Assembly (NCBI RefSeq): GCF_011397635.1
Contig: NC_064773.1
Location: forward strand, 6,158,782-6,222,781
Origin: Epinephelus fuscoguttatus
Taxonomy: Eukaryota; Chordata; Actinopteri; Perciformes; Serranidae
DNA: 64,000 nucleotides
Direction of reading: 5' to 3'
This document shows, piece by piece, positions 12,045-43,000 of the stretch (the stretch's first letter is position 1; the number at the start of each line of letters is the position of its first letter). Made by a program: the position numbers and the translations under genes. The notes beneath the pieces are model-generated. The model searched no databases and had not been told where the DNA came from. It saw nothing but the letters and a program-made list of their open reading frames with translations.

Positions 12045-13197
12045 ACCCAAGAGAGCAGTTGTGTTTTGCCAACCAGGAGGGCACTTTAGCACACGTTTTG
12101 GCTCCAAAGAGGGCACTTTAGCATGCTTTTTGGCTTCCAAGAGGGCACTTTAGCACGCTTTTTGGCTTCCAAGAGGGCACTTTAGCACACGTTTTGGCTC
12201 CAAAGAGGGCACTTTAGCGTGCTTTTTAGCTCCCAAGAGGGCACTTTAGCACACGTTTTGGCTCCCAAGAGGGCACTTTAGCATGCTTTTTGGCTCCAAA
12301 GAGGGCACTTTAGCGTGCTTTTTACCTCCCAAGAGGGCACTTTAGCACACGTTTTGGCTCCCAAGAGGGCACTTTAGCGTGCTTTTTAGCTCCCAAGAGG
12401 GCACTTTAGCACACGTTTTGGCTCCCAAGAGGGCACTTTAGCATGCTTTTTGGCTTCCAAGAGGGCACTTTAGCACGCTTTTTGGCTTCCAAGAGGGCAC
12501 TTTAGCACGCTTCCAAGAGGGCACTTTAGCACGCTTTTTGGCTTCCAAGAGGGCACTTTAGCGTGCTTTTTAGCTCCCAAGAGGGCACTTTAGCACACTT
12601 TTTGGCTCCAAAGAGGGCACTTTAGCGCTCGTTTTGGCTCCAAAGAGGGCACTTTAGCATGCTTTTTGGCTCCCAAGAGGGCACTTTAGCACGCTTTTTG
12701 GCTCCCAAGAGGGCACTTTAACACACGTTTTGGCTCCAAAGAGGGCACTTTAGCATGCTTTTTGGCTCCAAAGAGGGCGCTTTAGCACGCTTTTTGGCTC
12801 CCAAGAGGGCACTTTAGCATGCTTTTTGGCTCCAAAGAGGGCACTTTAGCATGCTTTTTGGCTCCCAAGAGGGCACTTTAGCATGCTTTTTGGCTCCCAA
12901 GAGGGCACTTTAGCACACGTTTTGGCTCCCAAGAGGGCACTTTAGCGTGCTTTTTAGCTCCCAAGAGGGCACTTTAGCACACTTTTTGGCTCCAAAGAGG
13001 GCACTTTAGCGCTCGTTTTGGCTCCAAAGAGGGCATTTTAGTGTGCGTTTTGGCTCCCAAGAGGGCACTTTAGCGTGCGTTTTGGCTCCCAAGAGGACAC
13101 TTTAGCACGCGTTCTGGTTCCAGAGAGGGAACTTTAGCACACGTTTTGGCTCCAAAGAGGACACTTTAGCGCGCATTTTGGCTCCAAAGAGAACACT
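12045..13197. repeat. Minisatellite, 32-bp unit, about 36 copies
   Basis: Tandem units read approximately gagggcactttagcac followed by gctttttggctcccaa. The distance between successive gaggg blocks is 32 bp (for example 12,077 to 12,109). Variants alternate between agcacacgttttggct and agcatgctttttggct forms, and the last units (13,080-13,197) are the most diverged. An isolated diverged unit lies upstream near 11,603, and the block cagtgtgaatttcata occurs on both sides of the array (about 11,431 and 13,238). Confidence 0.97.
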
Positions 13198-15819
13198 GTC
13201 CACCTTTAAATTCCTGTTAAGACACTTTGAGAACTGACAGTGTGAATTTCATACACTCACCTGTTCCAAGAAAGGAGAGGATGCAGTTCTCGGCAGTAGT
13301 AATAGCAGAGGGGAGCAAAGGGCGCAACCTAACATTGGGTAAATTGTAACATGGACTTTTTATGTTGTTACACAGGGTCGATCCTGTTTTGCTTCCAGCC
13401 AGTTGACCACAATACCACTGAGCAATGACCTGCAAAATTCCACAGAGATTGGACATTTTTCAGTGGAGTTCAGTAACATAGGAATGTTTTCAGCCGACAT
13501 AAGCAAATTTCTTTGTCATACTTGTTTTTTGATGACTGAGCTGTCTGTGTAAGTCACTGAATCCAATCATACATCATCCTAATACTGTCTTGTTGCCTTA
13601 AACATAGCACCATCTTGATCTATGTTACCAACTCCCAGCAAGTGTTATCTAGGCTTGATCAGATTTCCACACAGCAGGGTTAGTTGCAACATGGTGCATT
13701 TTCTCTTGTCCTTAATTAAATGAGATATACTTTGTATTTTTAATTTGTCAGGTATCTTATTGACACATAGTTTCACAGTCTTGTTGATATTCATACATTC
13801 AAAACTCGTAAATTGACATGTAAATCTAGGTTAATCTATGGGTCCAACCATTGAATGTGGATGATAGACTAGCAGCTGGATGGATACCTATTCTTTCTCT
13901 GATATAGATGGAGACCTATAGTATATAGATAGAATTGTATTGAATTAATTATGTATAGACTTTTCCAGCAAGTGTTACCACTAATCCCCTCATTTTAGAT
14001 CATTGATGAACCACGAAAGAAGATTGTATTGTTACAGTGTCTGGTTGTGTCAGGGTTTATGCTGTGCACGCTCCTACCAGGTGCAGCACAACTTGGCGTA
14101 ACAGGTGTTTTTCAGAAGAAGAAGAAGCCGTTGCCATGTTGTTTACAGCTCCGGATATGTGGGGAAGATGGAGCGTCCCCGGACGTGGGGAGAAATGTAT
14201 GTTTGAACATTTCGTGTTAATAATAAACAAATGTATTTGAGTTCTATAGCTATGTCAATGTGACTTTAACCTGACATTACTTGACGGAAGTGGTAAAGTT
14301 TGATTGCTGATGTAATTATTTAGCTAACTGACAAAATGTGTTTTATATTTTTGTCCTCTTGATCCTTGCTGATGCATCATGTTGAAGAGTTTGAGCTCTG
14401 CAGACATCAGGATATGAAAATTACACTCATGTTTATCTGCGTTGGTTTATACCCTGATGTCTATTCTGTACCTATATTCTACACTGTGATGTGGCTTAAT
14501 GAAAAGAGCAACAAAAAAAATCAAGTCACTAAATATTCTTAAATTACTTTATTGTGCCTTTAAATGTTTAGTCAACATAACAGTTATTAGTTCATGTTGG
14601 TTCTCTTTGCAGCATCATAAAATCCAACTTAAGGAGCTGTGTGATCAGTGAACAGTCTGATCAGTATTGTCATTTAAATTAGTATTCAATAAATCATGGT
14701 ATATTGTGCAACCTTATCAAATCTTCAAAGGATGTTTTTTCTTCGGGGTTCCTACGCAGTATGGAAAATTGTCTAATTTGATTTCAATAATTTTCAGGCC
14801 AGGCTTAGTATGGAAAAAAGAAAAGAGTATATAAAAATATCTGTGTTTTCAGCCCATTGTCCCTGTTCTGTTCTCTAAAATATGAAATTTCTAAAGATAA
14901 ATTGATCATGCAAGCAGAGTGTTTTTCATGGTGTTTGAAGCAGGCAGCCAGTGTGGCCAAGATGTTTACCACTGAATAAAAGATTGCAGGCCACAGCAAG
15001 CTTGATGTCGTCGAAAACAAGGCAAGAAATATGCTTGTAATTTATTGTACAGTGCTGCCTCAACATCTGAACGTTGCAGCTTTGCCCCCAGTGCCTTATA
15101 ACTGAGCCTAAAAATCTATAGAGTTTCAAAGTCTCGAAATTTGGATCTGAAGCCTAGAGCTTATTCAGTATTCTGATACAGATGAGGCATTAGTATAGTC
15201 TGTTAGTTATGACAGAGTAGCACCACTGGCCAGTTAAATCACTCCATCCCTAAAAAATTAAAACAGCACAAGGCAATGCCAGTGATACTTTTTTTTTGTT
15301 TTGTGTGTTATCTACCCTTTTGCGGGACACACCAGCAGAGGATGCTCAAGGGATCCTGGAGCAACACACCATGGCAGAGTCAACCAGAACGGGAAGGACT
15401 ACAGAACCCACCAAAAGACTGATATCATCATAGAGGGAGTGGAGGTGTGGTACAAACCTAAGATAATAACCTAAGGTGTTGCCTAGCTTCTAGAGTTGAT
15501 GTATGTACTCAACCTGGCATCCAAAACCATTTGGTTTCACTTTTGAATTGTTCCACAAATATGTGATATTCTGGGCCATAGAATTTCTCAGGCTCGGCTA
15601 ATGGTGCAAGATAATTAACTGCTTTATGTGAAAGCAAAGTGACATTTAATATTGGGCTGTCATCCCTGATCTGCCTCTGCACAAATCCTATGAAAAGTTG
15701 TCAACAACGAATACCCTTACCTAACCCTCATATGCAATTTTTTCTATTGACTCAAAAGCTCTGTGTTGTTGATGAGACTGTTTGAAAAAAAGATATTTGT
15801 TGATAACTGTTGTAGTCAA
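13198..15819. other. No gene seen
   Basis: AT-rich intergenic sequence. None of the small frames (for example at 14,029-14,220) shows a recognisable protein family or a convincing exon context. Confidence 0.4.
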
Positions 15820-16151
15820 GGGCGGCACGGTGGTGTGGTGGTTAGCACTCTCGCCTCACAGCAAGAGGGTTGCCGGTTCGATGGGGGTGTGGGAGCCCTT
15901 CTGTGCGGAGTTTGCATGTTCTCCCCGTGTCAGCGTGGGTTCTCGCCGGGCACTCCAGCTTCCTCCCACAGTCCAAAGACATGCAGATTGGGTTAATTGG
16001 TTACTCTAAATTGTCCATAGGTGTGAATGTGAGCGTGAGTGGTTGTTTGTCTCTATGTGTCAGCCCTGTGATAGTCTGGTGACCTGTCCAGGGTGTACCC
16101 TGCCTCTCGCCAGCCCCCCCGCGACCCTCAATGAATGAATAAATGAATGAA
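15820..16151 (+). mobile_element. Full-length tRNA-derived SINE (family i) with target-site duplication
   Basis: The head gggcggcacggtggtgtggt continues into an A-box-like ggtggttagcactc and a B-box-like ccggttcgat, marking a tRNA-derived Pol III promoter. The body (cttcctcccacagtccaaag) and the L2-like 3' part (gtgatagtctggtgacctgt) end in an ATGA-type tail. A perfect 12-bp direct repeat, tgttgtagtcaa, flanks the element (15,808-15,819 and 16,152-16,163), showing insertion by target-primed reverse transcription. Truncated relatives lie at about 5,545, 51,245 and 60,590. Confidence 0.93.
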
Positions 16152-16222
16152 TGTTGTAGTCAATGTCATAACAAGTTAAAAAAAATCATAAAATAGTAAG
16201 TGACAAACAGTCTCGTTAGGTA

Positions 16223-19200
16223 TGCCATAAAAAGTCATAGTATAGCATGTCGAAAAAAGGGATAAAAAAGTCATAGTATAGCATGTCGAAAAAAGTGATT
16301 AAAAAGTCATAGTATAGCATGTCGAAAAAAGGGATAAAAAAGTCATAGTATAGCATGTTGAAAAAGGTGATAAAAAAGTCATAGTATAGCATGTTGAAAA
16401 AAGTGATTAAAAAGTCATAGTATAGCATGTCGAAAAAAGTGATTAAAGTCATAGTATAGCATGTCAAAAAAGTGATAAAAAGTCATAGTATAGCATGTTG
16501 AAAAAAGTGATTAAAAAGTCATAGTATAGCATGTCGAAAAAGTGATTAAAAAGTCATAGTATAGCATGTCGAAAAAAGGTGATAAAAAAAGTCATAGTAT
16601 AGTATGTCGAAAAAAGTCATAGTATAGCATGTCGAAAAAAGTGATTAAAAAGTCATAATATAGCATATTGAAAAAGGTGATAAAAAAGTCATAGTGTAGC
16701 ATGTTGAAAAAAGGTGATAAAAAAGTCATAGTATAGTATGTCGAAAAAAGTCATAGTATAGCATGTCGAAAAAAGTGATTAAAAAGTCATAGTATAGCAT
16801 GTCGAAAAAAGTGATTAAAAAGTCATAGTATAGCATGTTGAAAAAAGGTGATTAAAAAGTCATAGTATAGCATATTGAAAAAGGTGATAAAAAAGTCATA
16901 GTATAGCATGTTGAAAAAAGGTGATAAAAAAGTCATAGTATAGCATGTTGAAAAAAGTCAGTTTAGCATGTCGAAAAAAGTGATAAAACAGTCATTGTAT
17001 AGCATGCCGAACATAGTGATTCTATAGTTATAGCATGTTGAAAAAAGGTGATAAAAAGTCATAGTATAGCATGTCGAAAAAAGTGATAAAAAAGTCATAG
17101 CATGTGGAAATAAGAAGATAAAAATGTCATAGTATAGCATGTTGAAAAAAGGTGATTAAAAAGTCATAGTATAGCATGTCGAAAAAAGTGATTAAAAAGT
17201 CATAGTATAGCATGTCGAAAAAAGTCATAGTATAGCATGTCGAAAAAAGTGATTAAAAAGTCATAGTATAGCATGTCGAAAAAAGTGATTAAAAAGTCAT
17301 AGTATAGCATGTTGAAAAAAGGTGATTAAAAAGTCATAGTATAGCATGTCGAAAAAAGTGATTAAAAAGTCATAGTATAGCATGTCGAAAAAGTGATTAA
17401 AAAGTCATAGTATAGCATGTCGAAAAAAGGTGATAAAAAAAGTCATAGTATAGTATGTCGAAAAAAAGTGATTAAAGTCATAGTATAGCATGTCGAAAAA
17501 GTGATTAAAAAGTCATAGTATAGCATGTCGAAAAAGGTGATAAAAAAAGTCATAGTATAGCATGTCGAAAAAAGTCAGTTTAGCATGTTGAAAAAAGTGA
17601 TTAAAAAGTCATAGTATAGCATGTCGAAAAAGTGATTAAAAAGTCATAGTATAGCATGTCGAAAAAAGGTGATAAAAAAAAGTCATAGTATAGTATGTCG
17701 AAAAAAGTGATTAAAAAGTCATAGTATAGCATATTGAAAAAGGTGATAAAAAAGTCATAGTGTAGCATATTGAAAAAGGTGATAAAAAAGTCATAGTATA
17801 GTATGTCGAAAAAAGTCATAGTATAGCATGTCGAAAAAAGTGATTAAAAAGTCATAGTATAGCATGTCGAAAAAAGTGATTAAAAAGTCATAGTATAGCA
17901 TGTTGAAAAAAGGTGATTAAAAAGTCATAGTATAGCATGTTGAAAAAAGGTGATAAAAAAGTCATAGTATAGCATGTTGAAAAAAGTCAGTTTAGCATGT
18001 CGAAAAAAGTGATAAAAAAGTCATAGTATAGCATGTCGAAAAAAGTGATTAAAACGTCATACCATGTTGAAAAAAGGTGATAAAAAGTCATAGTATAGCA
18101 TGTCGAAAAAAGTGATTAAAAAGTCATAGTAGAGTATGTCGAAAAAGTCATAGTATAGTACGTCGAAACAGTCAGTTTAGCATGTTGAAAAAAGTGATTA
18201 AAAAGTCATAGTATAGCATGTCGAAAAAGTGATTAAAAAGTCATAGTATAGCATGTCGAAAAAAGGTGATAAAAAAAGTCATAGTATAGTATGTCGAAAA
18301 AAGTGATTAAAAAGTCATAGTATAGCATATTGAAAAAGGTGATAAAAAAGTCACAGTATAGTATGTCGAAAAAAGTGATTAAAAAGTCATAGTGTAGCAT
18401 GTTGAAAAAAGGTGATAAAAAAGTCATAGTATAGTATGTCGAAAAAAGTCATAGTATAGCATGTCGAAAAAAGTGATTAAAAAGTCATAGTATAGCATGT
18501 CGAAAAAAGTGATTAAAAAGTCATAGTATAGCATGTTGAAAAAAGGTGATTAAAAAGTCATAGTATAGCATATTGAAAAAGGTGATAAAAAAGTCATAGT
18601 ATAGCATGTTGAAAAAAGGTGATAAAAAAGTCATAGTATAGCATGTTGAAAAAAGTCAGTTTAGCATGTCGAAAAAAGTGATAAAAAAGTCATAGTATAG
18701 CATGTCGAAAAAAGTGATTAAAAAGTCATAGCATGTTGAAAAAAGGTGATAAAAAGTCATAGTATAGCATGTCGAAAAAAGTGATTAAAAAGTCATAGTA
18801 TAGCATATTGAAAAAGGTGATAAAAAAGTCATAGTATAGCATGTCGAAAAAAGGTGATAAAAAAAGTCATAGTATAGTATGTCGAAAAAAGTCATAGTAT
18901 AGCATGTCGAAAAAAGTGATTAAAAAGTCATAGTATAGCATGTTGAAAAAAGGTGATTAAAAAGTCATAGTATAGCATATTGAAAAAGGTGATAAAAAAG
19001 TCATAGTATAGCATGTTGAAAAAAGGTGATAAAAAAGTCATAGTATAGCATGTTGAAAAAAGGTGATAAAAAAGTCATAGTATAGCATGTTGAAAAAAGT
19101 CAGTTTAGCATGTCGAAAAAAGTGATAAAAAAGTCATAGTATAGCATGTCGAAAAAAGTGATTAAAAAGTAATAGCATGTTGAAAAAAGGTGATAAAAAG

Positions 19201-21402
19201 TCATAGTATAGCATGTCGAAAAAAGTGATAAAAAAGTCATAGCATGTTGAAAAAAGGTGATAAAAAAGTCATAGTATAGCATGCCGAAAAAAGTGATTAA
19301 AAAGTCATAGTATAGCATGTCGAAAAAAGTGATTAAAAAGTCATAGTATAGCATGTCGAAAAAAGTCATAGTATAGCATGTCGAAAAAAGTGATTAAAAA
19401 GTCATAGTATAGCATGTCGAAAAAAGTGATTAAAAAGTCATAGTATAGCATGTTGAAAAAAGTGATTAAAAAGTCATAGTATAGCATGTCGAAAAAAGTG
19501 ATTAAAAAGTCATAGTATAGCATGTTGAAAAAAGGTGATTAAAAAGTCATAGTATAGCATGTCGAAAAAAGTGATTAAAAAGTCATAGTATAGCATGTCG
19601 AAAAAGTGATTAAAAAGTCATAGTATAGCATGTCGAAAAAAGGTGATAAAAAAAGTCATAGTATAGTATGTCGAAAAAAGTCATAGTATAGCATGTCGAA
19701 AAAAGTCAGTTTAGCATGTTGAAAAAAGTGATTAAAAAGTCATAGTATAGCATGTCGAAAAAGTGATTAAAAAGTCATAGTATAGCATGTCGAAAAAAGG
19801 TGATAAAAAAAAGTCATAGTATAGTATGTCGAAAAAAGTGATTAAAAAGTCATGGTATAGCATATTGAAAAAGGTGATAAAAAAGTCATAGTGTAGCATG
19901 TTGAAAAAAGGTGATAAAAAAGTCATAGTATAGTATGTTGAAAAAAGTCATAGTATAGCATGTCGAAAAAAGTGATTAAAAAGTCATAGTATAGCATGTC
20001 GAAAAAAGTGATTAAAAAGTCATAGTATAGCATGTCGAAAAAAGTGATAAAAAAGTCATAGTATAGCATGTTGAAAAAAGGTGATAAAAAAGTCATAGTA
20101 TAGCATGTTGAAAAAAGTCAGTTTAGCATGTCGAAAAAAGTGATAAAAAAGTCATAGTATAGCATGTCGAAAAAAGTGATTAAAAAGTCATAGCATGTTG
20201 AAAAAAGGTGATAAAAAGTCATAGTATAGCATGTCGAAAAAAGTGATTAAAAAGTCATAGTATAGTATGTCGAAAAAAGTCATAGTATAGCATGTCGAAA
20301 AAAGTCAGTTTAGCATGTTGAAAAAAGTGATTAAAAAGTCATAGTATAGCATGTCGAAAAAGTGATTAAAAAGTCATAGTATAGCATGTCGAAAAAAGGT
20401 GATAAAAAAAGTCATAGTATAGTATGTCGAAAAAAGTGATTAAAAAGTCATAGTATAGCATATTGAAAAAGGTGATTAAAAAGTCATAGTATAGCATGTC
20501 GAAAAAAGTGATTAAAAAGTCATAGTATAGCATGTTGAAAAAAGGTGATTAAAAAGTCATAGTATAGCATGTCGAAAAAAGTCATAGTATAGCATGTTGA
20601 AAAAAGTGATTAAAAAGTCATAGTATAGCATGTCGAAAAAAGTGATTAAAAAGTCATAGTATAGCATGTTGAAAAAAGGTGATTAAAAAGTCATAGTATA
20701 GCATATTGAAAAAGGTGATAAAAAAGTCATAGTATAGCATGTCGAAAAAAGTGATTAAAAAGTCATAGTATAGCATGTTGAAAAAAGTGATAAAAAAGTC
20801 ATAGTATAGCATGTTGAAAAAAGGTGATAAAAAAGTCATAGTATAGCATGCCGAAAAAGGTGATAAAAAAGTCATAGCATGTCGAAAAAGTGATAAAAAG
20901 TCATAGTATAGCATGTCGAAAAAAGTGATAAAAAAGTCATAGTATAGCATGTCGAAAAAAGTGATTAAAAAGTCATAGTATAGCATGTTGAAAAAAGGTG
21001 ATAAAAAAGTCATAGTATAGCATGTCGAAAAAAGTGATTAAAAAGTCATAGTATAGCATGTCGAAAAAAGTGATTAAAAAGTCATAGTATAGCATGTTGA
21101 AAAAAGGTGATTAAAAAGTCATAGTATAGCATGTCGAAAAAAGGTGATAAAAAAGTCATAGTATAGCATGTTGAAAAAAGGTGATAAAAAAGTCATAGTA
21201 TAGCATGTCGAAAAAAGTGATTAAAAAGTCACAGTATAGCATGTTGAAAAAAAGTGATTAAAAAGTCATAGTATAGCATGTTGAAAAAAGGTGATTAAAA
21301 AGTCATAGTATAGCATGTTGAAAAAAGTCATAGTTTAGCATGTCGAAAAAAGTGATAAAAAAGTCATAGTATAGCATGTTGAAAAACTGGATAAAAAAGT
21401 CA
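16223..21402. repeat. Satellite array 1, about 36-bp unit, 5.2 kb
   Basis: About 140 tandem units (length divided by period) have the form gtcatagtatagcatgtcg then aaaaaagtgattaaaaa. Variants include gttg and attg for gtcg, ggtgataaaaaa for gtgattaaaaa, a shortened form lacking the gtgatt half, and a gtcagtttagcatg form. The gtcagtttagcatg variant recurs in two contexts at spacings of roughly 400-1,000 bp (near 16,958, 17,573, 17,985, 18,170, 18,653, 19,098, 19,704, 20,115, 20,305), indicating higher-order structure. The array lies downstream of atp5f1c and shares its core with array 2 at 23,291. Because 36 is a multiple of three, the minus strand shows long frames repeating MLYYDFLITFFD, which I do not consider genes. 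Confidence 0.98.
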
Positions 21403-21995
21403 GACAAAATCAAGATAAGCTAGATCTTTGTTGACATTGTACAGACATACTTGTGTACCACAGCAGAACGAAATTGGGATACTCTCCACTTTGGTGCAAA
21501 AGAAGACAAAAAAAAACAAGATAAAATAAAATATATGAAGAGTAGAAGAATATATATAATCCAACATATACAAAATATACACTTAAGTGTGATCTAAAGT
21601 GCAGGTGATAAATAGATTATTGTTGGTGATGAATATATTGTTCATTGCACGTGACTCATTTTTGAAGAAAAAAGGCAGCTAGTCAGATGTGGTTTATATT
21701 TATTAGTGCTATTGCCGTTACAAAAGCTATCCCTGAGTCTATTTGTCCGTGACTTCAGTGCCCTGAATCTCCTGCCAGAGGGCAGCAGCTCAAACATCCG
21801 GTGTCCTGGGTGTGTGCAGTCTCTCAGGATGCTATGTGCTCTCTTGAGACAGCGAGTACTGTAGAGGTCCTACAGGGAGGGGAGAGGATGGCCAATGAAT
21901 TTCTGGGCAGTGTTAATGACCCTTTGTAGTGCCATCTTGTGCGCCATGGTACAGCTGGAGAGCCGCACAGAGATGCAGTATGTCAGCACACTCAA
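21403..21995 (-). mobile_element. LINE fragment (Rex/CR1-like ORF2 C-terminus)
   Basis: On the minus strand, about 21,970-21,725 reads KMALQRVINTAQKFIGHPL, a stop codon, then DLYSTRCLKRAHSILRDC and GHRMFELLPSGRRFRALKS. This is the C-terminal region of CR1/Rex-type LINE ORF2 proteins. The in-frame stop shows it is inactive. It sits at the right edge of satellite array 1, with diverged satellite units continuing on its far side (about 21,997-22,066). Confidence 0.75.
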
Positions 21996-21996
21996 T

Positions 21997-22066
21997 AGTA
22001 TCGCATGTTGAAAAACATCATAGTATATAGCATGTCAAAAAAAGTGAGAATAAGGTCATAGTACAC
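21997..22066. repeat. Diverged satellite units beyond the LINE
   Basis: Segments tcgcatgttgaaaaacatca and catagtatatagcatgtc are recognisable copies of the array 1 unit. They show that the satellite once extended to within about 200 bp of the atp5f1c polyadenylation signal. Confidence 0.8.
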
Positions 22067-22266
22067 TTACCATCTTTAGGACCCAAACAGCAGTAAAGAG
22101 ACATCATTCATTGGCTTACCTTAGAAATATTTTATTTTCATCAAGTAACACATTTGGAGGATGGATTCCATAAGACTGAAGCATCAAGATTCATAGTTCT
22201 CAGTCAACAGCAGTTATTGTGATGAAAAACACATACAGATGAAAAGCATGAAGGTTGTGTAAGAGG

Positions 22267-22272
22267 TTTATT
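22267..22272 (-). terminator. atp5f1c polyadenylation signal
   Basis: AATAAA on the minus strand lies about 110 bp past the atp5f1c stop codon. Cleavage is expected near 22,240-22,255. Confidence 0.8.
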
Positions 22273-22381
22273 TTCTCCATATATTTTACAAATAGAAGCA
22301 CATATGTTCATAGACTCTGGACAACACGTGCCTGAAGTACTTTGAAGAGCTAAAGGTAATGGAAACGAAGGTCTTGCTCGT

Positions 22382-25300
22382 TTATCTGCAGAGAAAGAGG
22401 GAAAAAAAAAAGGTAAGAACAGTGTTCAATATGGCTGGGAACAGGGTGAAAACTCAGTCTAAAAGGCATCTAGACTAGGGCTGAACTATTGTATTCATTT
22501 ATCCAATTGATAACAACATGTTTGTTTGTGTGATGTATTATATTGTGATGTATTATATTGTACAAATTATAATGTTTACTCTGCTCAGCTTTGTTTGTTT
22601 TTTTGCAATGTTATGTTTTTAAATAAATATTCACAGAAATTCTGCATCAGTTCATGTCGTTTCATCCAGCCACTGGCCAGCATGAAAGATCAGTTGAGTG
22701 TATTTGGTGTGGTGTGAGTTATATTATAGAAAACTTTATTGCAATTTCAGTTTGAAAAAATATCAGCCCCCATCTAGGGTTTGGATCAAAGAATTTAGGC
22801 TTAACATTTCTACATAGGTTGCTGGTCAAACTAGCCAAGAAGGGATCCTAACATTACAGTCTGCTCTACAGTGTTACCTCCTCTGTTAAAACAAGCCTCA
22901 GTTCCTGAGTTCAGAAAAGGATGAGGAGGAATAGATTTCGTTAGAGAGGAGAAAGAGACATGCAAGAATGTGATAGTTTCTGGAAATTTATAAAGACATG
23001 CATGGATGAGAAAAGAGTCTAAGAAAAGTTTTTGTAGTGATGGAGGAATACAATGATGGGTTGAGTTACTGAGGAAAATCTGCACATTGTTAAGTGAGAC
23101 AAGAGAATGAAAACACAGCAAATACTTACAGAGCAGCAGCTCCAGAGATGATCTCAATGAGCTCCTTGGTGATGACAGCCTGTCTGGTACGGTTGAAGGT
23201 GAGGGTCAGCTTGTCAATCATCTCAGCTGAGGAAGGGAGAGACAAATCTGTCAGTTACTGTCACAATGTTCAACGTTTTTACTTTAGTATGTAAAGTCAT
23301 AGTGTAGTGTTTCGTCCAAAACATGATCAAAAGTCATAGTATAGCATGTCGTCCAAAATATGATCAAAAAAGTCATAGTATAGTATGTCGTCCAAAGTAT
23401 GATCAAAAAGTCATAGTATAGTATGTCGTCCAAAATATGATCAAAAGTCATAGTATAGTATGTCGTCCAAAATATGATATAAACATCATAGTATAGTATG
23501 TCGTCCAAAATATGATCAAAAAGTCATAGTTTAGTATGTCGTCCAAAATATGATCAAAAAAGTCATAGTATAGTATGTCGTCCAAAATATGATATAAACA
23601 TCATAGTATAGTATGTCGTCCAAAATATGATCAAAAAAAGTCATAGTATAGTATGTCGTCCAAAATATGATATAAACATCATAGTATAGTATGTCGTCCA
23701 AAATATGATATAAACATCATAGTATAGTATGTCGTCCAAAATATGATCAAAAAGTCATAGTTTAGTATGTCGTCCAAAATATGATCAAAAAAGTCATAGT
23801 ATAGTATGTCGTCCAAAATTTGATCAAAAAAGTCATAGTATAGTATGTCGTCCAAAATTTGATCAAAAAGTCATAGTTTAGTATGTCGTCCAAAATATGA
23901 TCAAAAAAGTCATAGTATAGTATGTCGTCCAAAATATGATATAAACATCATAGTATAGTATGTCGTCCAAAGTATGATCAAAAAAGTCATAGTATAGTAT
24001 GTCGTCCAAAATATGATATAAACATCATAGTATAGTATGTCGTCCAAAGTATGATCAAAAAAGTCATAGTATAGTATGTTGTCCAAAATATGATAAAAAG
24101 TCATAGTTTAGTATGTCGTCCAAAATATGATATAAACATCATAGTATAGTATGTCGTCCAAAATATGATCAAAAAAGTCATAGTATAGTATGTCGTCCAA
24201 AATATGATATAAACATCATAGTATAGTATGTCGTCCAAAGTATGATCAAAAAAGTCATAGTATAGTATGTTGTCCAAAATATGATAAAAAGTCATAGTTT
24301 AGTATGTCGTCCAAAATATGATATAAACATCATAGTATAGTATGTCGTCCAAAATATGATCCAAAAAAGTCATAGTATAGTATGTCGTCCAAAATTTGAT
24401 CAAAAAAGTCATAGTATAGTATGTCGTCCAAAATTTGATCAAAAAAAGTCATAGTATAGTATGTCGTCCAAAATATGATATAAACATCATAGTATAGTAT
24501 GTCGTCCAAAGTATGATCAAAAAAGTCATAGTATAGTATGTTGTCCAAAATTTGATAAAAAGTCATAGTATAGTATGTCGTCCAAAATATGATATAAACA
24601 TCATAGTATAGTATGTCGTCCAAAATTTGATCAAAAAAGTCATAGTATAGTATGTCGTCCAAAATTTGATCAAAAAAAGTCATAGTATAGTATGTCGTCC
24701 AAAATTTGATAAAAAGTCATAGTATAGTATGTCGTCCAAAATATGATATAAACATCATAGTATAGTATGTCGTCCAAAATATGATCAAAAAGTCATAGTA
24801 TAGTATGTCCAAAATATGATATAAACATCATAGTATAGTATGTCGTCCAAAATTTGATCAAAAAATCATAGTATAGTATGTCGTCCAAAATATGATCAAA
24901 AAGTCATAGTATAGTATGTCGTCCAAAATATGATCAAAAAAGTCATAGTATAGCATGTCGTCCAAAATATGATCAAAAAGTCATAGTATAGTATGTCGTC
25001 CAAAATATGATCAAAAAGTCATAGTATAGTATGTCGTCCAAAATATGATCAAAAAGTCATAGTATAGTATGTCGTCCAAAATATGATCAAAAAAGTCATA
25101 GTATAGTATGTCGTCCAAAATATGATCAAAAAAGTCATAGTATAGTATGTCGTCCAAAAAATTAGCGAAATGTCACAGTATAGCTGTAGGTCAGATTTCT
25201 CTGCTATAAACATTAAAACCTAGTACCGTTTCAATGAGCACCATATGAGAATGACACGAGCTCCACTCAAGCCAAGATTCAAACTCGTGGCAGAGCAGTC

Positions 25301-28300
25301 ACAGGCCTGTTTCTATCTCTTCATGAAACATGTGAACAGAGAAAAGGGAGCTGCTCAAAGCTGTTTTTTTCCCTAACAGATTTTATTCAGATTGTGTCTT
25401 GTTTTCATTTACTTTACGACTAATACAGCGATTTGGTTTCACTTTGTGTTAAATGTGTCTGCATATGAAGAGCATCCCACTGTGACAATGGACAATAAAT
25501 ACTGTTTAAGTGACATGGAAATGTGTGTTGTTGATTTCATTTGATAAAAACGTTAGGAAATGTTTGTAACTGGACATAAACTTCAGATATCCCTGGTCTA
25601 AACAGACATTTAGACACTATGGCAATCACCAGAAATATGTCATGAGTGGGTGTTCGGCTACTCTCAGGTACTGCAGGTGTGAGTATTAGGACAGAGATAG
25701 AGATGGTAAATGTGTTTGGCAGGAAGTCTTACAGGCGTTCTTGCTGGCGCTGTCCATAGCGGTCATCCTGGCACTCTGCTCAGCAGTGGAGCCCTCCTTC
25801 AGGGCCAGGTAGATGACGTTGACCAGAGCGAACTCCTGGTAGTTCCTCAGCACGTCAGCATCAATGTCATCATAGATGCTCAGGCTTTCTGTTGGGGAGG
25901 ATTACAGATGTTCAGCATCTCTCTGTACCCGAGGATGTGCCTTCAACTTTTCAAAAACAACAACAACAACAAAAACAACAACAACAACAACCATACCTGC
26001 ATTAGCAACTGTCTCTGTGGAAAACAAAGGCTTCTGTTCAGTCTTGTAGGAGATGACAGACCTGTATCAGAGACAGGGAAATGTATTTTACATGATTAAT
26101 GTGATAGAGTATTTGTACACATTTCAAATTTATGTCGATCTCTCAGGTTGTGTAACTTGAAATGATTTTATTCAAATAAGTCATCAGGGGAAGGAGAAAG
26201 GTTGTGTTCCATTGAGCAAACGAGAGGTTTTTGACCTCGTCTTGTTTTTACAAATACAAGATTACTTCACTTAAGTCTGTCATGATAGCTAATTTTGTTC
26301 CCTTTAAAAGAGCGGTGAACTTTTAATTCTTAAGAATATCTAGACATTGGAATATAAAAAAATATTTACCATTTTAAAAAGTTAAGTTGTTCACGTATAC
26401 AAGAAAAGTATATATAAAATTCTAGTCTGTCTGAGACCTAATACAACATTTGGACATCAAACGATGCCTTGTGACAAATAGACAAGCTTAGCGAAGCCCG
26501 AGAACACCGCAGCTACACTGGCAACACCGCCTGGAAGCTGGTGGCTTTATAGAGTGGAGGATTTTGGAAGGTAAAACTACGAACGACGGGAGTTGCCAAG
26601 CTAACGACGATCAGGACTCTTCGTTTTAGCTGCAGGCTATGGGTTAGTCTTGCATGACTAGCCTCCCTGGGGGGGGGGGGGTATTATTGATCTAGGAGCT
26701 GTAAACTGAATTGCACACACGGGATAAATAAAGTTTTCGTCATCGGTGTCTGTGTTATTTTCTTTGGAACTGCACAAGTTGGCGGAGTGGAGAGCGAGAG
26801 GAAAAAAAGAGGTAAAAATTGCTGTACCCAAGTCTCAAAATGGTCGGGAAAACCCTGCATTTTAATCTGGCATCATACTGGCTAAAATGTTGGAGACATT
26901 CTTATGTATACAAACACACATGTAAGAACAGCGGGTAAGATCGAGGTCATATCATATCGAATGAGTCGATAAAGTAATTATAGCGACAGGCCTGACTTTA
27001 CTTTTAAGTAACTTTAACTAACTTATAGTAACTAAGCTCCATGCACAAAGTCATGGTCATGTCACTGTGAAACTGACAATCTCAGGTTGAAGAAAGCTCA
27101 AAACATAAAAATCACCCCCACTCAATAATTTTATTATAGTTTATTTGATGGTCAGTTACAGATTTCTATTCGGGTATTTATTACTTTGAGTTTAATATTC
27201 AGGCATTCAGATTTATTTTTGTAGGTAGTTAGCCAGTTTCTGATGAAGTTCAAGATTGATCATGTCCAAAAGTGTTGGGGTGGTGATATCGGCCAATTCG
27301 TCCACAATCTCCTGCTCCAAACTAACGTTATTATAACAGCCTTTATTAATCCACTGTGGGTCGACCTCTAATACAAATCCAAATGAAGAAAAATAGAGTA
27401 CAAACTGAGTGTCGTACCTGAATCTGTTGAAGAACACAGCGCCCTGGTCAAATTCATATCCAGAGTTGAGCAGCTCGGTGGCGACGATGGAGGCATCGCT
27501 GAAGCTGGGGGGCTTACGGCCGACTTCCTTACAGTTGAAGATGATGTGCTTCCCATGAGTTCTGATGAGGAACAGCGAGGATTATATATTAGTACAGGAA
27601 AACAATCATCACCTGCACACTTCATTCTTTGATCTGTGTTCTCGCACACAGAAACCTTGCACACTAATTCATCAGTTTTATGAGGATGAACTTCAGGAGG
27701 CTCAGTTCCCCGTCCTACCTGTGCAGCAGGCCTCTCAGCTTGTCTCCCACATTGACCACCATGACCTCCTTGCCAGCGCTGGTCAGGGTATTGATCTCGT
27801 TCTTGATGGCCTTGGCTATACCAGAGTGGATGGCACCACAGAGCCCACGGTCAGAAGTCACACCGACGATCAAGTGCTTGGCCGCCTTGTCCTCTGGCGC
27901 TTTGATGTCAGCCTTCTCGTACAGGGCTGGAGAGCAGAGAGGAAAATTAGTCCAGTGTCGAAAACTTTACATCACACCATCTAGCAAAGTGAGAGACAAC
28001 ATGGTGGCAACTTGAACATACCCAGAGCACCAGAGCCGTACACTCTGGCAGGCTTCAGGCTCCTCTCGGCACGAGCATACTTGGCAGCGGCCACCATCTT
28101 CATGGACTTGGTGATTTTCTGGATATTCTTGATGGACTTCAACCGAATGGTGACTGGAGAGAAGATATTACTCAGACTGACACCAGTTTGGATTATATTG
28201 AAACTCTAATATAAACCTGACCAGCTCACTGAACTATATTAACCTATCTGAAAACTTAGTGATCATTTCTTTACTGTCACTCGGGTTTTGTTTTTGGGTT

Positions 28301-31660: not shown

Positions 31661-31748
31661 GCTGCGATTCGAGCAGTTTTTTTTCTCGGTTTTAAGCGTC
31701 ATTAACAAATAAACAGGAAGTGTTGTGTGTTTATTGTCGCCGGTCAGG

Positions 31749-34700
31749 ATGGGGAAAGCGGATTTTCTCTCTCCTAAGGCGATAGCCAACCGGATTAAAT
31801 CCAAAGGGCTCCAGAAGTTGAGATGGTATTGTCAGATGTGTCAGAAACAGTGTCGAGACGAGGTGAGCTGTTCGTTAAGTCGGTGTTATTTAGTTTATCT
31901 GTTGTTGCTGGTTTTGTTTTTAACGTATTTATCTTTTCAGAATGGCTTCAAATGTCACTGCATGTCTGAGTCCCACCAGAGGCAGCTGCTGCTCGCCTCC
32001 GAGGACCCCAACAAGTTCATGGACTATTTCTCTGAGTGAGTTCATGTATGGCGCATGAATCAGGCATGTTAGCTGTGAACTACAGATGGTTAGGGCTCAT
32101 TCTTGTGTCTTCTCTTCACAGTGAGTTCAAAAGCGACTTCCTGGAGCTGCTCAGGAGACGTTTTGGTGAGTCCTGACTCCACACAGATGCTCCAGATGTT
32201 TGGATCCAACAACAGCAGCACTGATTCAGTTTGTCTTCACCTGCAGGGACCAAGAGAGTTCACAACAACATCGTCTACAATGAATACATCAGCGACAGAG
32301 AGCACGTCCACATGAACTCCACACAGTGGGAGACTCTGACTGACTTCACCAAGTGGCTGGGCAGAGAAGGTAATCCACATACACACTTCTCCTAACATCC
32401 ATGATGATGAGGACGAAACATTTAGGAAAGGAAGTCCTCCTCTCAGACACAGATATATTTACAGTAGCAGTAGTAGAATTTCAATATTGGCAAATAAAGT
32501 AAATATTAAATGTAAAATGTAAAGATTTCATGGCAAAGGCAGACAAATATCTTAAAATATCAGTATCAGATCTTTTAAAAAAGCAGCTGTACATCAATTC
32601 ACCATAAAGTGGTTGAAACCCAGCCACTCAAAAATGGAAGTAAATAATTAAAAAAAATATATATAATGCTCAGACATCCAGAGGGAGCTCAGAGTCGAGC
32701 TGCTGCTCCTTCGTGTAGAAAGGGGTCAGTTGAGGTGGCTCGGGCATCTGATCAGGATCCTCCTGGGCACGTCCCACTGGTAGGAGGCCCCGCGGCAGAC
32801 CCAGAACACGCTGGAGGGATTACATCTGGCCTAGGAACACCTTGGGGTCCGCCAGGAGGTGGAAAGCGTTGCTCAGCCTGCTGCCCCCGCAACTTGGCCC
32901 CGGATAAGTTGATGAAAATGGATGTATGGATAAAAAACTTTAAGGGTAAAAAAGGAGGGTTTTCAGAGAATGGTCAGAAATGATGGGGCTAATATTAACA
33001 GTCCACTGTGTAAGATTTAGGGGAATTTCAAGGCAGCTAGCAGTGAGGACTGCAGAATACAACAGCAAAAAAATCCTGTGTCAAGTTTTTACAGGGAGCC
33101 AGATTATCTACTGAGGTTTCTAACTGGTAAAAACACCTAATAAAGCAGTTTGACATCACAAATCAGTGTTTCTCAGACGCTATTTGGCAAGTCTAACATG
33201 GGCCACTAAACCTGGCACCTGCTTATGTATGCTCACCTTTTTGTGCTTATAACTTAAGATCCAGGCATTCACCAGGAGCTGAACTATCTGCAGATGTCTC
33301 TTAATCTCCAAAACAAACGGACCTGATGATTTAAAGGGGAACTAATGTTTTTTTCAATCTGGGCCCTATTTTCTGATCTACTTTTGTCTAAATGAGTGAT
33401 AGGATGTTCAGTATGTGACATTTCTCCAGTATGAAGCTAGGGCTGACCTGCCTGCAGCCCGTGAGTGCGCTATATTAAATAATAGGGCACTCAGACAGCG
33501 TCAAACGTCAAAATACGTCCACTAAAAGTGCATTTTTTTCACACAGATAGGCTCGGATTGTTAGTATAATTATCTGACAACATAACGGAAAGGAGGAATG
33601 AACGTCTGTGTTTACCTTTAACTGGATTCAGACATGTTCCTCTGCCTGTTGCTGCTCCCTCTTTCTCCTCGTCCGCTCTTCAGTTTCAGTGAGCTCTGTA
33701 TCCCTGTACTCTGGTTCAAATAAATACGGGCGCTCATCAAATTCAAATGGCTCATCCAGATCCAGTTGGTCAAAATCAGGTAAAAATTCAGCCATGACTA
33801 CTCCAAACAGAGTAACTCCTCGCGTTTGTAAGCTCACTCCAGCGGTAACTTCCTGCAACAACTCAAATCTCGCGAGACGTGAGATTTCAGAGCCAGACTT
33901 TCACTCTGTGAGTGAGTGTTTTGACTTGCCACAACAAACATGTCTGAATTTGGGGTGTTGGTGGCTAAGTGGATAGAGCAGGCGCCCCATGTACAAGGCT
34001 GTTGCCGCAGTGGCCCGGGTTAGACTCTAGCCTGTGGCCCTTTGCTGCATGTCATTCTCTCTCTCTCTCTCCCTGTCACACTTAGCTTGCCTGTCGATTA
34101 AAGGCTAAAATGCCCAAAAAAATATCTTAAAAAAAAAAAAAACATGTCTGAACACAGAGTACACGGACGTAGAAACTGTAGAAACATGGCGTAGATGAGG
34201 ATCTGCTCCCTATGTACACTTAAAAGACTCATTCTAAGGTAACGAAAACACAAAGATTCTTATTTCCAGGTGATCATAAACTAAAGAAAACATACTTATT
34301 ATATTATATTCCATTGCTGCCATTATATCCCCCTGAATCCTACACACTGGACCTTTTAAAGAAATGAATAAGGAAGAGATTTAAAAAGTAAAATGTGTTG
34401 GCACAGCTCATGGCTACTTATGAAACAAGTCCGTTTGTCAAATGATGATGAAAACACTAAATGTCGATCATGTAAATGTGGCAAAAAAACAACAACATGT
34501 ATGTCTTTTTAAATGAATCATGGAAATTACATGATCATGACATGTTGCATATATTTTATTTTATTTTATTTTATACTCTATAAAGTGACTTTCAGTGTTT
34601 TGAAAGGTGCTTTTTAAATAATAAGAATAATAAAATAAAATTAAAAAAATTAGGAATCATGAAAATGATTTTGGTTTGAAATGCAATGGATTTGGTATCA

Positions 34701-37024: not shown

Positions 37025-40000
37025 TCAGAGCGGCGGCAGGAAGCTGTTGAGATTTGGGACGATGTAGTGGGTGTAGTGGCCGTCGATGAAGCCCTTCCCA
37101 CTGTTGTGTATGAACCAGCAGTAGATGTTGGAGCCGCGCTTCTTATCCTGCCTGTAGTCCTTCTGCCAGCCCCTAAAACACACACACACACACACACAAG
37201 TTTAAGGTTTTAATAAGAAATGCGTTTGTTTAGAAATCACTTCCAGTAAGAGTTAAGACGTACCTGGTGACGAGCAGCCTGTTGCCCTTCACTTCCATGA
37301 TGGCCTCCTTCTTTAGAGGGTCGAGTCCTTCGCGCACATCGTACACCCTCGCCTCAGGCTCTCTGGAAAACTGCCCTGAGAGATCACACACACATTCTCA
37401 GCTTCACAGGATCAGTAAAAAAGTTAGGTGGAAGTTATACTTGTGCGTTGAACAGACGCCGCACCTAAGGTGACGCAGACCTCCTGTCTGTCTCTGTAAG
37501 CTGAAACCATTTCCCTCAGTGGAAACAAAGCTTTCATTTACTTTAATTTCACAGATAAGAAACAATAAATTGTGAAGACAATAAAGCCTCCACTAAAATA
37601 GCATTTTAAGTCTTGTGTGTGATTTATCCTGGCTTCATATGAGTAGAGGAAAAGTCCGCTAGCTGCTAGGCTAATTTATACAATGTAAAATGCCATAGGC
37701 TTGTGCTAATAACATTAGCATGTTGTATTTGTGGGGAAAATGTGTCCAGATAAAGACAAGTGTTTGTCTGTGAATGCTGTGAGTTATAGTGAAGCTGATT
37801 TGTGTACTTGTGTTTGAAATTGCCTCGTGCCTAGTGTTTTGGAGGTGTTACTGCAGAGTGACACAGACAAGTATAAATGCTCACAACGGTGTAGGCTATG
37901 GCGTAGGGTCTGCTGCACAACTATAAATCCCGCTTTAGGCTGTGGTTCAGTTGGTAAAGTTGGTAACATTAAACAATAACCATCAGTAACACCAGATAAA
38001 GTTACTGTTAATGTTTGATGATTGGTGGAGACGTACCTATGAGTCCATGGACCAGAGGAGAGTACTGGTTGTCGTTGGGAATGTAGATACCGAGGAAGTC
38101 AACGTTGACCGGATGTTTCTTCCACACGCGGTGAAGCAGCACCATCACCTCAATGTTATTATTTATTATGATGGAAACATGAGAGTTCTTCACGATGGCT
38201 ATCCTCACACTGAAACACACAAACATGACAACACGAAATTAAAAAAAGTCTTCTGATGTGAAAGCGGCAGACGCTGTGATTAAAGGTGCAATGGTGGTTA
38301 CCCATCCTGTGTGATCTCGGCTGTGGCCCCCCAGGTGAAGGAGTGGTTGCTCTGGCCATCATTCATGTCGATGCTGTTGGTGCTGACGGTCACGCTGACT
38401 CCATCAGGCTGGTAGTAGACGGAGATGGTGCCGAAGTAGGTGCGCAGTTTGCTTTTGTGGGCCTGCTTAGAGCCAACCAGCTGACCGTTCACCACCAAAC
38501 CTTAAAGAGAAGGAGCAACACATGGCAACGTTACGGTGAAGATTCTCAGTCACCCAGGTCATGGTAATGTTAAGGGTTACATCGCTGGCACCTGGACCTG
38601 CTTAAGTTTCTTGAGAATGTTTCCCGTCTGATCCAAGAGGCTTGAAAACTGATTGTCCTGGATTGTCCCTCTTCCTCTTAGACAGGTGTGTAATGTGTTT
38701 ATTTTATATGAAATACATTGCGAGACGTGGTTTACATCCATATATGAGTTTACACTGTGTCTGTTTTTTAACTTGCTTCCACAACAAATTCACACATTCG
38801 CTAAATTAAGATATTTACAGCACAAGTTGACGGTGCTCATGGAAACACTACCACTTTTGTCCACAGGGTAGCGCCAAAAACAACACAAAATGAAAGCTCC
38901 TTGCAGTTGCTTTAAAGTACAGAGATGTGGTGTTTTACTACACAGTGCAGTCAGATTACCTGTTCCAGTGTCAGACACCAGGTTGAGAATGTGACCAGGT
39001 GTGGAGTCGATGTTGAAGCAGACGTCCATGTTGCTTCTGGGCAGGTGGACGATGAAGTGAGGGTCGTTATCCACTGGGTGAGAAACACTGAGCTCGTCAC
39101 ACATCGAGAACTGTTTACATTCAACACTGCAGCTGGAAGACTGGTCATGATTATATAGAGGTCATCAATGTGTGTGTGTATGTGTGTGTGTTACCTAAGT
39201 TGACCTGTTGAGGCAGGGCCCACTCCTCCGGGCCCTTCGCAGCCTGACTTGGGGGGGCCGTCGTTGTCATCTGGACCCAGGGTGGAGGCTGGTAGACGAC
39301 ACGCACCGGAGCCAGACCAGAGGACGCCGAGCCTCCTCCTCCTCCTCCTACTCCTACTCCTGCACACACACACGACACAGTGTAAAGGTCACCCAGGTGT
39401 CACATCATCACCACTGACATCACTGACTCTAGGTTAGCTGTGATTTAGTTTGTAGTTCGTTTCTTCTGTGCTGCATTTTGGTGTCCTCTATAAAGGTCGA
39501 TATATTAGTGTAAGAAAACCAACCACCTTTAAAAAATCCAGTTTAACCATAACGTCAGCAGATAAAGAGTGTATCGTCTGTCGGGTACCTATGCAGCAGC
39601 CGTGCTTGGGGTCCTTCGGGGAGTCGGCCAGCAGCCTCTCCTTGGCGTCCTCGCTCTCCACCAGCATGGCGGTGAGAGGAGTGACGAACTGATGCTCCAC
39701 GGCCAGACTCATGATCCGCTGTGTGATCTTCCTCTTCTTGACAGCCGTGGTAGCCAGAGACCTGCGGGAGAGACAAGCTGCAGCTGACAAATACTGACAG
39801 TGATGCAAATTACAATCGTATTTCTACAAACATTTAAATGTTTCCTGATAGAAGTGGTATAGAAACCTTGGGCTTATTTCTTCTACGCTCCTGAGCCTCT
39901 CACCTTTCAGAGAGCAGCTGTTTGATGGTGATGTACGCCCACAGTTGTCTGGCAAAGCCTGTGAATGAGTGCTGCTGCTTGGCCAGCTCCATGTCCAGCT

Positions 40001-43000
40001 CCGACATGTCACCTTCTGTCTCCAGGGTGATGTCCAGGCGGGCCTGCAGGATGAGATGAGACAGAGGTCACTGGTAGTCCGGCTTCTTCCCTTCACCCAC
40101 GGCCTTGAAACCTCAGAACTTCTGATTGTAAACATGTTGTCAATGCCTGGATGTGTGTGTGTTATACTCACAGCAGATGCGGTGGTGAAGCTGGTCAGTG
40201 TGCTGCTGTCAGATGGCAGCACCTTCCCGGCCACCACCAGCTCTGAGCCGCTGAAGTATTTATCAAAGCGGTTCTGGGTGACGTCGGACACAGAGTCGTC
40301 TGGGAACTGAATGGTGATTCTCCTCAGCAGAGGAGAGGACACCTGGCTGTAAAACGTCTGCAGGAGGAGAGAAGAAGACGATGTGGTCAATCTTTAAACC
40401 CTGATTTCCTTCACGTCACAATGAAACAACATGTTGTCTGAAACCATTTCCCTCAGTGGAAACAAAGCTTTTATTTACTTCAGTTTCACAGATAAGAAAC
40501 AATAAATTGTGAAGACAATAAAACCTCCACAAAAATAGCATTTTAAGTCTTGTGTGTGATTTATCCTGGCTTCATATGAGTAGAGGAAATCTCCACTAGC
40601 TGCTAGGCTAATTTATACAATGTAAAATGCCATAGGCTTGTGCTAATAACGTTAGCATGTTGTATTTGTTTGGAAAACGTGTTTAGTGTAAGACAGTTGT
40701 TTTGTCAGTGAACCTTGTGAGTTGTAATGGAGCTGAATTTTGTAACGTTACCTTTGTTAAATGCTGCTGTTGTCCCTGGTTTCATATGAGTAGAGGAAAA
40801 GTCCACTAGCTGCTAGGCTAATTTATACAATGTAAAATGCCATAGGCTTGTGCTAATAACATTAGCATGTTGTATTTGTGGGGAAAATGTGTCCAGATAA
40901 AGACAAGTGTTTGTCTGTGAATGCTGCGAGTTATAGTGAAGCTGATTTGTGTACTTGTGTTTGAAACAGTCTCTATTAAGTCATGTTTAATGTGTGTTTA
41001 ATGCGTGTTTGCATAGACCAAATCTTTTGCCTTAGTTACTACTGTTCTGCATCACTGCAAAATATTAGGCCCAACACAGAACACATGTTGCATGGAGCTG
41101 ATTCCACTTTCATAAAGGGACCAAAGATGTTTTTTGATTTAAGTGATGCTGAGTTGTTTGCTGAACGTCATTGTACCCGTAGCTGCTCTGCCGCATCATG
41201 GTTGGCGTAGATCCTCTGAGCCATGCCCCTGTTCTCCATGGCGATACGCTCCAGGAAGTCATAGTCCACATCAAAGCCGATGCCAAGCGAGAAGAGAGAA
41301 AACTCCTCCCTCATCACCCTCTTCACGTTCTTTTGGATGGTGCTCAGCTTGATCTCACCTGCAGAAACCAGCATATCATCTTATTGTGTCAAGAAACCTT
41401 CATCTTGTATTATCTTTGATGCTTTTTTGCTTTTATGTCACAGTTTATTTCTTCCTCTGGTGGATGAGCTGCTAAACCTGACCGCTGAATTTAACTTGCT
41501 CAACAGTCTTACCCACAGTGGGGTCTCCATCAGACACCAGGATGATCATGGAGACGGATCGAGGGTCGATGAGCCCCTGATTGGACGCCCTCACCAGCAT
41601 CTGGACTGCTCTCATCAGAGCCTCATTGATGTTGGTGCCTGGGGTCAAAGGTCAGTAAAATACACTCATCATCACACAGTTTGTGTTTATCAGATTATCA
41701 AAGCAATCAAACTACTCTCTCATACCTCCGTTGGGTTTGATGTTCTGGATGTATCTCTTGGCGTCTGCGATCTGAATGGAGGAGCCGGGGACCAGCTCCT
41801 CGCTCCAGCAGCGTATGTTGTGGTTGAAGTCGATGATGCTGAAGTGGTCATCTATGGTCAGGTCATCCAAAATAGCCTGCATGGCCTCCACCGTCTGTGA
41901 GAGAGGTTTGGATTTAGATGCATTCTGCGGACTGACCACACGGCGGCAGCATTTCACAGAGCAGCTGGTGACAATCACCAACAAACAGGAATGATGCTGG
42001 AGGGGCCAAAGTGCAGAAAAACTTCATGTAAACAACAACTTACTTGCTTCATCTTGACTCCCCACATGGATCCACTGACATCGATGACAAACACAATGTT
42101 TTTAGGGAGAGGGGAGAGGTTGGCGGGGGCGAAGAACTGGACAAAGTGGCCGTCTGAGACCTGGAAGAAACAGACGAGACTTGAAAGATCATCTCCAAAC
42201 TGTTTCTAGCCGTATGTCATATTTAAACAAGTTAAAGTCTGGAAGGGTCTAACGAGTGTCATACCTGTAGCTCTCCTGCATTGCTGTCCCTGGTCACATC
42301 ATAACTGACGGTAAAGACGCCGTCGATAGCGCTGCCGGTGCAGTTGTCACACTTTCTCTGCTGCTGGAGGTTGGGCTTGAAGACGATATGAGCCTGGGGA
42401 CAAAGACACAGTGCATGTTACCACTGCTTAGACATTCAGATGCCTGCCTACACATTAAGGAGATTATTAATATCTCTGTGTGTATATGTTCTTTACATAT
42501 ACCTCAAAAAATACTGAACAGATTTTTGAGAAACTTAAAGATAAAAAATGACTCACTCAGTGTAAAAGTCCTTAGTACAGGCAGGCAGTCCAAAATGCAT
42601 CTGACTGCTAAAAATCCTTTATGAATACATGGATAAACTAATGCATTTAGACTAGAGAGTCTTCATCAGGGTGTAAAATGTATTGGAAACAGGTGTCATG
42701 TGAAGGTCATGTGTCACAGGTCACATGATATATTGGTGTAGCCCTACTAGACAAATAAAACAACACTGACAGAAATTGCAAATGAAAATGACATAAATGT
42801 TTACTCTAATATAATTAACATATTTATCAACAAGAAAAAAGGTTCAATACAAAATAAACAGAAAGAAAACAAGAGTGAAATACAATAAAAATGAACTTGA
42901 ACTCGTGGAGTTGCCCCCTGCTGGCCAGTAGAAAGACTGCAGGTTTAAGGCACTGAATCGGCTTCACGTTTCAGACGTACGTCCACTTCTTTGATACAGT

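What the first reader, a model, noticed from the sequence alone, without database searches (positions are those of the whole stretch)
16223..25165. Two related satellite arrays bracket the last two exons of atp5f1c
Array 1 (36-bp unit, 5.2 kb plus remnants to 22,066) and array 2 (38-bp unit, 1.9 kb) share the 19-base core gtcatagtatagYatgtcg but differ in the second half of the unit. Exon 8, exon 9 and the 3' UTR of a housekeeping gene lie in the 1.2 kb between them. The simplest reading is one ancestral satellite that seeded twice and then expanded and homogenised separately, with the exons held by selection. I know of no description of this satellite.
Basis: partly seen in the sequence, partly recalled or inferred. 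Interest (0 to 1): 0.72.

Follow-up and report, generated by a model that had tools for sequence, protein, structure and literature searches.

The report
Seabass-type satellite arrays around atp5f1c exons
Two stretches of short tandem repeats, similar in sequence to a repeat already mapped near the centromeres of the Asian seabass, sit inside and just behind a gene for the energy enzyme ATP synthase, where they likely arrived separately and then grew on their own; RNA read through the inner one would almost lack the two-letter signals used in splicing, which would help explain why the gene tolerates it.

Summary
Array 1 (36-bp unit, 16,228-21,402) and array 2 (38-bp unit, 23,293-25,183) lie in the same orientation around exon 8 and the last exon of atp5f1c (minus strand). 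They are related over the whole unit, and the monomer tree separates them with one change. The claim that the satellite is undescribed is wrong: the 38-mer FISH oligo Lca_38, pericentromeric in Asian seabass (PMC4833346), shares the core and, with array 2, the unit length. Whether two different family members were seeded, or one seed was copied locally, is open: column bootstraps put the array 2-Lca_38 pair closest in 62.5%, the two arrays closest in 26.6%. Array 1 holds a 2.15-kb internal duplication. New here: array 2 fills 75% of intron 7, stops 66 bp before the exon 8 acceptor, and has no AG and 15 GT in 1,891 bp on the gene's sense strand (141 and 236 on the other). This follows from unit and orientation; a rough test found no selection inside the array. 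Genome-wide copies, related species and species identity could not be tested. An ordinary kind of thing, with one testable idea.

The parts
16228..21402 (+). Array 1: 36-bp unit, 150 monomer pieces including short forms (about 25 bp) and partial ends, 5,175 bp
   Evidence: TRF; wraparound decomposition
16228..19239 (+). First copy of the 2.15-kb-offset internal duplication of array 1; the other copy is 18,380-21,402 (92.5% over 3,081 aligned columns)
   Evidence: self-BLAST; longest exact repeat 306 bp at 16,683-16,988 and 18,381-18,686
21420..21985 (-). Likely 5'-truncated LINE fragment (recalled, not confirmed) that separates array 1 from its remnant; ends approximate
   Evidence: sequence; Pfam gave 0 families for a typed translation of part of it
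21990..22075 (+). Decayed remnant of array 1-type monomers
   Evidence: score 58 to the array 1 unit, 37 to array 2, 46 to Lca_38; shuffle maxima 31, 30, 31 of 300
22250..22385 (-). Last exon of atp5f1c with stop codon and 3' UTR; AATAAA at 22,272-22,267; 3' end approximate
   Evidence: acceptor and AATAAA positions
23130..23226 (-). Exon 8 of atp5f1c (exon number as in the finding)
   Evidence: tblastn 100% over 32 residues; splice sites; Pfam PF00231
23227..23292 (-). 66 bp left between array 2 and exon 8, holding the acceptor, its polypyrimidine tract and a likely branch point (by eye)
   Evidence: sequence and coordinates
23293..25183 (+). Array 2: 38-bp unit, 51 monomer pieces including partial ends, 1,891 bp, 75% of intron 7
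   Evidence: TRF; decomposition; intron 7 ends
23227..25732 (-). Intron 7 of atp5f1c, 2,506 bp
   Evidence: splice-site positions

Best explanation
Two arrays that match the Asian seabass pericentromeric satellite Lca_38 in sequence lie in the same orientation in intron 7 and behind the 3' end of atp5f1c, and they likely arrived as separate insertions of already different family members and then likely grew by block duplication. Shown: the shared core and unit, the clean separation of the monomers, repeated multi-monomer blocks inside each array, the open exons with canonical splice sites, and the near absence of AG and GT on the gene's sense strand. Inferred: that pericentromeric DNA was the source, that the arrays entered separately, that unequal exchange or gene conversion spread the variants, and that the orientation of array 2 would make it nearly invisible to the splicing machinery. 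The arrays most likely do nothing for the gene; they would persist because they stop short of the branch-point region and offer few false splice sites.
For: Lca_38 oligo and its pericentromeric FISH signal (PMC4833346). Alignment scores above all of 500 shuffles: array 1-array 2 45 vs max 25, array 1-Lca_38 35 vs 20, array 2-Lca_38 44 vs 15. Distances 0.117/0.104 within, 0.285 between, 0.307 and 0.253 to Lca_38; 1 of 177 monomers has a nearest neighbour in the other array. One label change on the tree. Longest exact repeats 306 and 198 bp against maxima of 228 and 151 in 30 shuffles of monomer order. About 1 kb of flank on each side of the arrays shares only short matches of 11-16 bp. Sense-strand AG 0 and GT 15 in array 2, 2 and 9 in array 1; array 2 has 46 donor-like sites antisense and 0 sense. 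Array 2-Lca_38 is the closest pair in 62.5% of 5,000 column bootstraps.
Against: Lca_38 is one printed 38-mer. In 26.6% of bootstraps the two arrays are closest, and by consensus score array 2 is as near to array 1 (45) as to Lca_38 (44). Rooted with Lca_38, array 1 is a clade (0.785, on a branch of near-zero length) but array 2 is not (its ancestor node, 0.521, includes array 1), which also fits array 1 having come from an array 2-like seed. Same orientation and a 1.9-kb distance would also follow from local copying. One 15-bp exact match joins a flank of array 1 to one of array 2 (E = 0.006). Acceptor-like sites by my simple rule are 0 on both strands of array 2, so only donor-like sites favour the present orientation. 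Variants that make AG or GT are as frequent as neutral expectation. No genome-wide or cross-species copy could be looked at.
Confidence: 0.5

Rival explanations
1. One array arrived at atp5f1c and a piece of it was copied about 2 kb away across the two exons; the two then diverged in place.
For: Same orientation, short distance, full-unit homology; the two arrays are the closest pair in 26.6% of column bootstraps; with Lca_38 as root the node of array 2 includes array 1.
Against: The array 2-Lca_38 distance (0.253) is below the array 1-array 2 distance (0.285), though not decisively; no shared flank beyond matches of 11-16 bp.
Confidence: 0.38
2. The arrays are functional: the conserved core is a binding site, and the arrays shape chromatin, splicing or the 3' end of atp5f1c.
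For: Change is lower in the core than in the linker between arrays (0.134 vs 0.401, permutation P = 0.010), between array 1 and Lca_38 (P = 0.034), between array 2 and Lca_38 (P = 0.0044) and within array 2 (0.051 vs 0.146, P = 0.031).
Against: Within array 1 the core varies as much as the linker (0.112 vs 0.102, P = 0.61); columns are not independent and the linker changes cluster; no CENP-B-box-like site in either array; folding as DNA is weak (z -2.8 and -0.7 for array 2, +1.5 and +1.1 for array 1).
Confidence: 0.07
3. Assembly artefact: the arrays or their order are not real.
For: Tandem arrays are prone to misassembly; no reads were available.
Against: Longest exact internal repeat is 306 bp; monomer order is irregular; a LINE-like stretch and a remnant follow array 1.
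Confidence: 0.03

Closest known systems
Lca_38, pericentromeric tandem repeat of Lates calcarifer (PMC4833346; passages, outline and abstract seen)
   Same: Shares GTCATAGTATAGTATG exactly with array 2; the printed oligo is 38 letters, as is the array 2 unit; same order of core, TC insert and A-rich linker.
   Different: Linker differs by several changes; array 1 has a 36-bp unit without the insert; here the arrays lie in and behind a gene, whereas Lca_38 was reported as pericentromeric by FISH.
Euchromatic copies of heterochromatic satellites, such as Drosophila 1.688 and Tribolium satellites near genes (PMC10048060; passages seen)
   Same: Arrays of a family known from heterochromatin lie close to genes.
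   Different: Here about 143 and 49 copies; the 1.688 arrays near genes are described there as mostly up to six repeats. The heterochromatic source is inferred here.
Vertebrate intronic minisatellites (recalled)
   Same: Units of 36-38 bp and arrays of 1.9-5.2 kb fit the size class.
   Different: Similarity to a family known from pericentromeres; two related arrays around one gene end.

Membership tests
Lca_38 satellite family | Shared monomer sequence | tested here: met
   Scores 44 (array 2) and 35 (array 1) against maxima of 15 and 20 in 500 shuffles; second half alone P = 0.022 (array 2) and 0.17 (array 1, not significant)
Lca_38 satellite family | 38-bp unit | tested here: inconclusive
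   Met by array 2 (38), not by array 1 (36)
Lca_38 satellite family | Pericentromeric, high-copy arrays | not testable with these tools
   The genome search did not complete; no cytogenetic data for the window
Satellite DNA with concerted evolution | Monomers more alike within than between arrays | tested here: met
   0.117/0.104 within, 0.285 between
Satellite DNA with concerted evolution | Heterochromatic location | not testable with these tools
   No chromatin data
CENP-B-box satellites | TTCGnnnnAnnCGGG motif (recalled) | tested here: not met
   0 exact matches in both arrays, both strands
TE-borne tandem repeat | Array lies within a transposable element, so arrays share element flanks | tested here: inconclusive
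   Flanks of the two arrays share only matches of 11-16 bp, best E = 0.006; whether either array lies in an element was not tested otherwise

The most novel reading that the evidence does not exclude
A splice-silent satellite: a pericentromeric satellite unit whose one strand lacks both splice dinucleotides can colonise introns of essential genes up to the branch point, but only in that orientation, so intronic copies of this family would be strongly strand-biased genome-wide.
Probability: 0.25. Interest if true: 0.6.

Novelty: new member of a known kind. Interest (0 to 1): 0.38.

Why it matters
The strand property gives a simple, countable prediction about which satellites genes can tolerate: intronic copies should lie with the AG- and GT-free strand as sense.

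Tried and rejected
Further copies in the window: none at up to 3 mismatches; the best 80-bp tiles outside the masked array regions score 28, within the range that shuffled flanks reach (maximum 38). Core in viral contigs and genome contigs: 0 matches each; the tool warns that records of the window's own genome may be left out. Hairpins: as RNA the + strand folds better than shuffles (one 115-base piece of array 2, z -5.3; one 110-base piece of array 1, z -3.3), but the gene's sense strand gives z -1.5, -1.8 and -0.3, and as DNA the effect is weak or absent; not adopted as a mechanism. Edge decay: array 1 shows no gradient, and in both arrays the last full monomer is the clearly decayed one (5 mismatches each; the first of array 2 has 4). 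CpG deamination: CpG is not depleted (array 1 92 vs 79 expected, array 2 46 vs 37); in array 1 ATGTTG far outnumbers ATGTCA (48 vs 2), in array 2 it is 3 vs 1, which fits spread of a founder change better than deamination on both strands. Selection against AG or GT inside the arrays: none seen; that test goes column by column and scores 2 AG-making variants in array 2 although its sequence has no AG, so it is rough. The left flank of array 1 has a weak signal (6 of 300 shuffles as good), not pursued. A yellow drum paper with a primer match was checked and is unrelated. Rfam at gathering threshold and tRNA scans were empty. TAF3 probes gave only chance-level matches (E 0.10-0.62). Two Lates papers were searched for a 38-bp repeat: '38 bp' occurs in neither (passages).

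Full report
Observation. The core with up to 3 mismatches occurs 183 times in the window, every listed match on the + strand and within the arrays, against 0.01 expected. Wraparound decomposition gives 150 monomer pieces in array 1 (16,228-21,402) and 51 in array 2, with 0.037 and 0.046 substitutions per aligned base. A remnant of array 1-type monomers lies at 21,990-22,075 (score 58, shuffle maximum 31 of 300), beyond a stretch that I take, from recall, to be a truncated LINE; Pfam gave no family for a typed translation of part of it.

The gene. Exon 8 is 23,226-23,130, the last exon starts at 22,385, exon 7 ends at 25,733, and AATAAA lies at 22,272-22,267 (derived from the motif hits). Typed exon translations (266 residues, transit peptide not included) match solved ATP synthase gamma chains over their full length, best E = 6.8e-135. 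Intron 7 is 2,506 bp; array 2 is 1,891 bp of it and stops 66 bp before exon 8. No call identified the species; that it is a teleost is inferred from recall of its repeats and from Lca_38.

Already described. A text search for the core and its reverse complement in 5.39 million papers found three papers; one, the Asian seabass genome paper PMC4833346, prints the FISH oligo Lca_38 and reports a pericentromeric position (passages; outline and abstract). The other two hold one 12-letter word each and are about cabbage and fungal viruses. Further searches with shorter or other words and with the name listed no other fish paper on this repeat (8 of 8 papers listed; 5 of 5; 20 of 38; 40 of 43); the one fish paper among them was unrelated. 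The supplement with the full consensus list could not be read.

Relationship. Array 1 and array 2 consensus units align over their whole length (score 45, shuffle maximum 25 of 500), and so does each with Lca_38 (35 vs 20; 44 vs 15). The second halves alone: array 1-array 2 P = 0.0046, array 2-Lca_38 P = 0.022, array 1-Lca_38 P = 0.17, not significant. With 128 of 150 and 49 of 51 monomers (30-41 bp), mean distances are 0.117 and 0.104 within, 0.285 between, 0.307 and 0.253 to Lca_38; 1 of 177 monomers has a nearest neighbour in the other array. The tree needs one label change (200 shuffles: mean 43.7, minimum 37); rooted with Lca_38, array 1 is a clade (0.785, near-zero branch) and array 2 is not. 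Over 5,000 column bootstraps array 2-Lca_38 is the closest pair in 62.5%, the two arrays in 26.6%, array 1-Lca_38 in 10.9%. I read this as a 38-bp type near the ancestral form with the 36-bp type derived, but the order of events is not settled.

Growth. Array 1 aligns to itself at an offset of 2,152 bp with 92.5% identity over 3,081 columns, against 83.7-87.6% in the other 24 of the 25 rows shown (159 rows in all). Longest exact repeats are 306 bp (array 1) and 198 bp (array 2), above the maxima of 228 and 151 when monomer order is shuffled 30 times. So blocks of several monomers were likely duplicated, more than once and at different sizes. The flanks of the two arrays share only matches of 11-16 bp, the best a 15-bp exact match with E = 0.006.

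Strand. On the gene's sense strand the consensus of either unit has no AG and no GT. Array 2 has 0 AG (73 expected from composition, minimum 59 of 200 shuffles) and 15 GT (102 expected, minimum 81); array 1 has 2 (96 expected) and 9 (184 expected). These shuffles treat each copy as independent, so the fair yardstick is the unit: of 20,000 composition-matched random 38-mers, 1.3% lack both on at least one strand. The antisense strand of array 2 has 141 AG, 236 GT and 46 donor-like sites, the sense strand 0 donor-like sites; acceptor-like sites are 0 on both strands. The Lca_38 oligo has 0 AG and 1 GT on the same strand (all). Array 1, which is not in an intron, has the same property, so it belongs to the unit, and the orientation of array 2 alone has a chance of one in two. 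Variants that create AG or GT are as common as neutral expectation in both arrays by a rough column test. The orientation filter is therefore a hypothesis drawn from one intron.

Core against linker. Change is concentrated in the linker between the arrays (0.401 vs 0.134, P = 0.010), against Lca_38 (P = 0.034 and 0.0044) and within array 2 (P = 0.031), but not within array 1 (0.102 vs 0.112, P = 0.61); columns are not independent and the linker differences cluster. This does not establish a binding site.

Verdict. A real pair of arrays similar to a known fish satellite, in an unusual but not unheard-of place (PMC10048060, passages). The new points are the family assignment, the 36-bp subtype, the internal duplication history and the splice-silent strand.

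Noticed in passing
12073-13191: A third, unrelated tandem array with a 32-bp unit (35.2 copies); six 14-letter words of its unit were found in no paper of the library.
   Followed up: partly
15808-16163: A SINE-like element (recalled) flanked by an exact 12-bp duplication at 15,808-15,819 and 16,152-16,163, ending 64 bp before array 1 (read by eye).
   Followed up: partly
20654-21037 and 24330-24716: Open frames of 127 and 128 codons run through the arrays on the minus strand; repetitive, unlikely to be genes.
   Followed up: no
31713-32039, 39488-44902, 59108-59455: Frames that look like KIN and ITIH-family exons (recalled, not searched), which would match the vertebrate ATP5F1C neighbourhood.
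   Followed up: no
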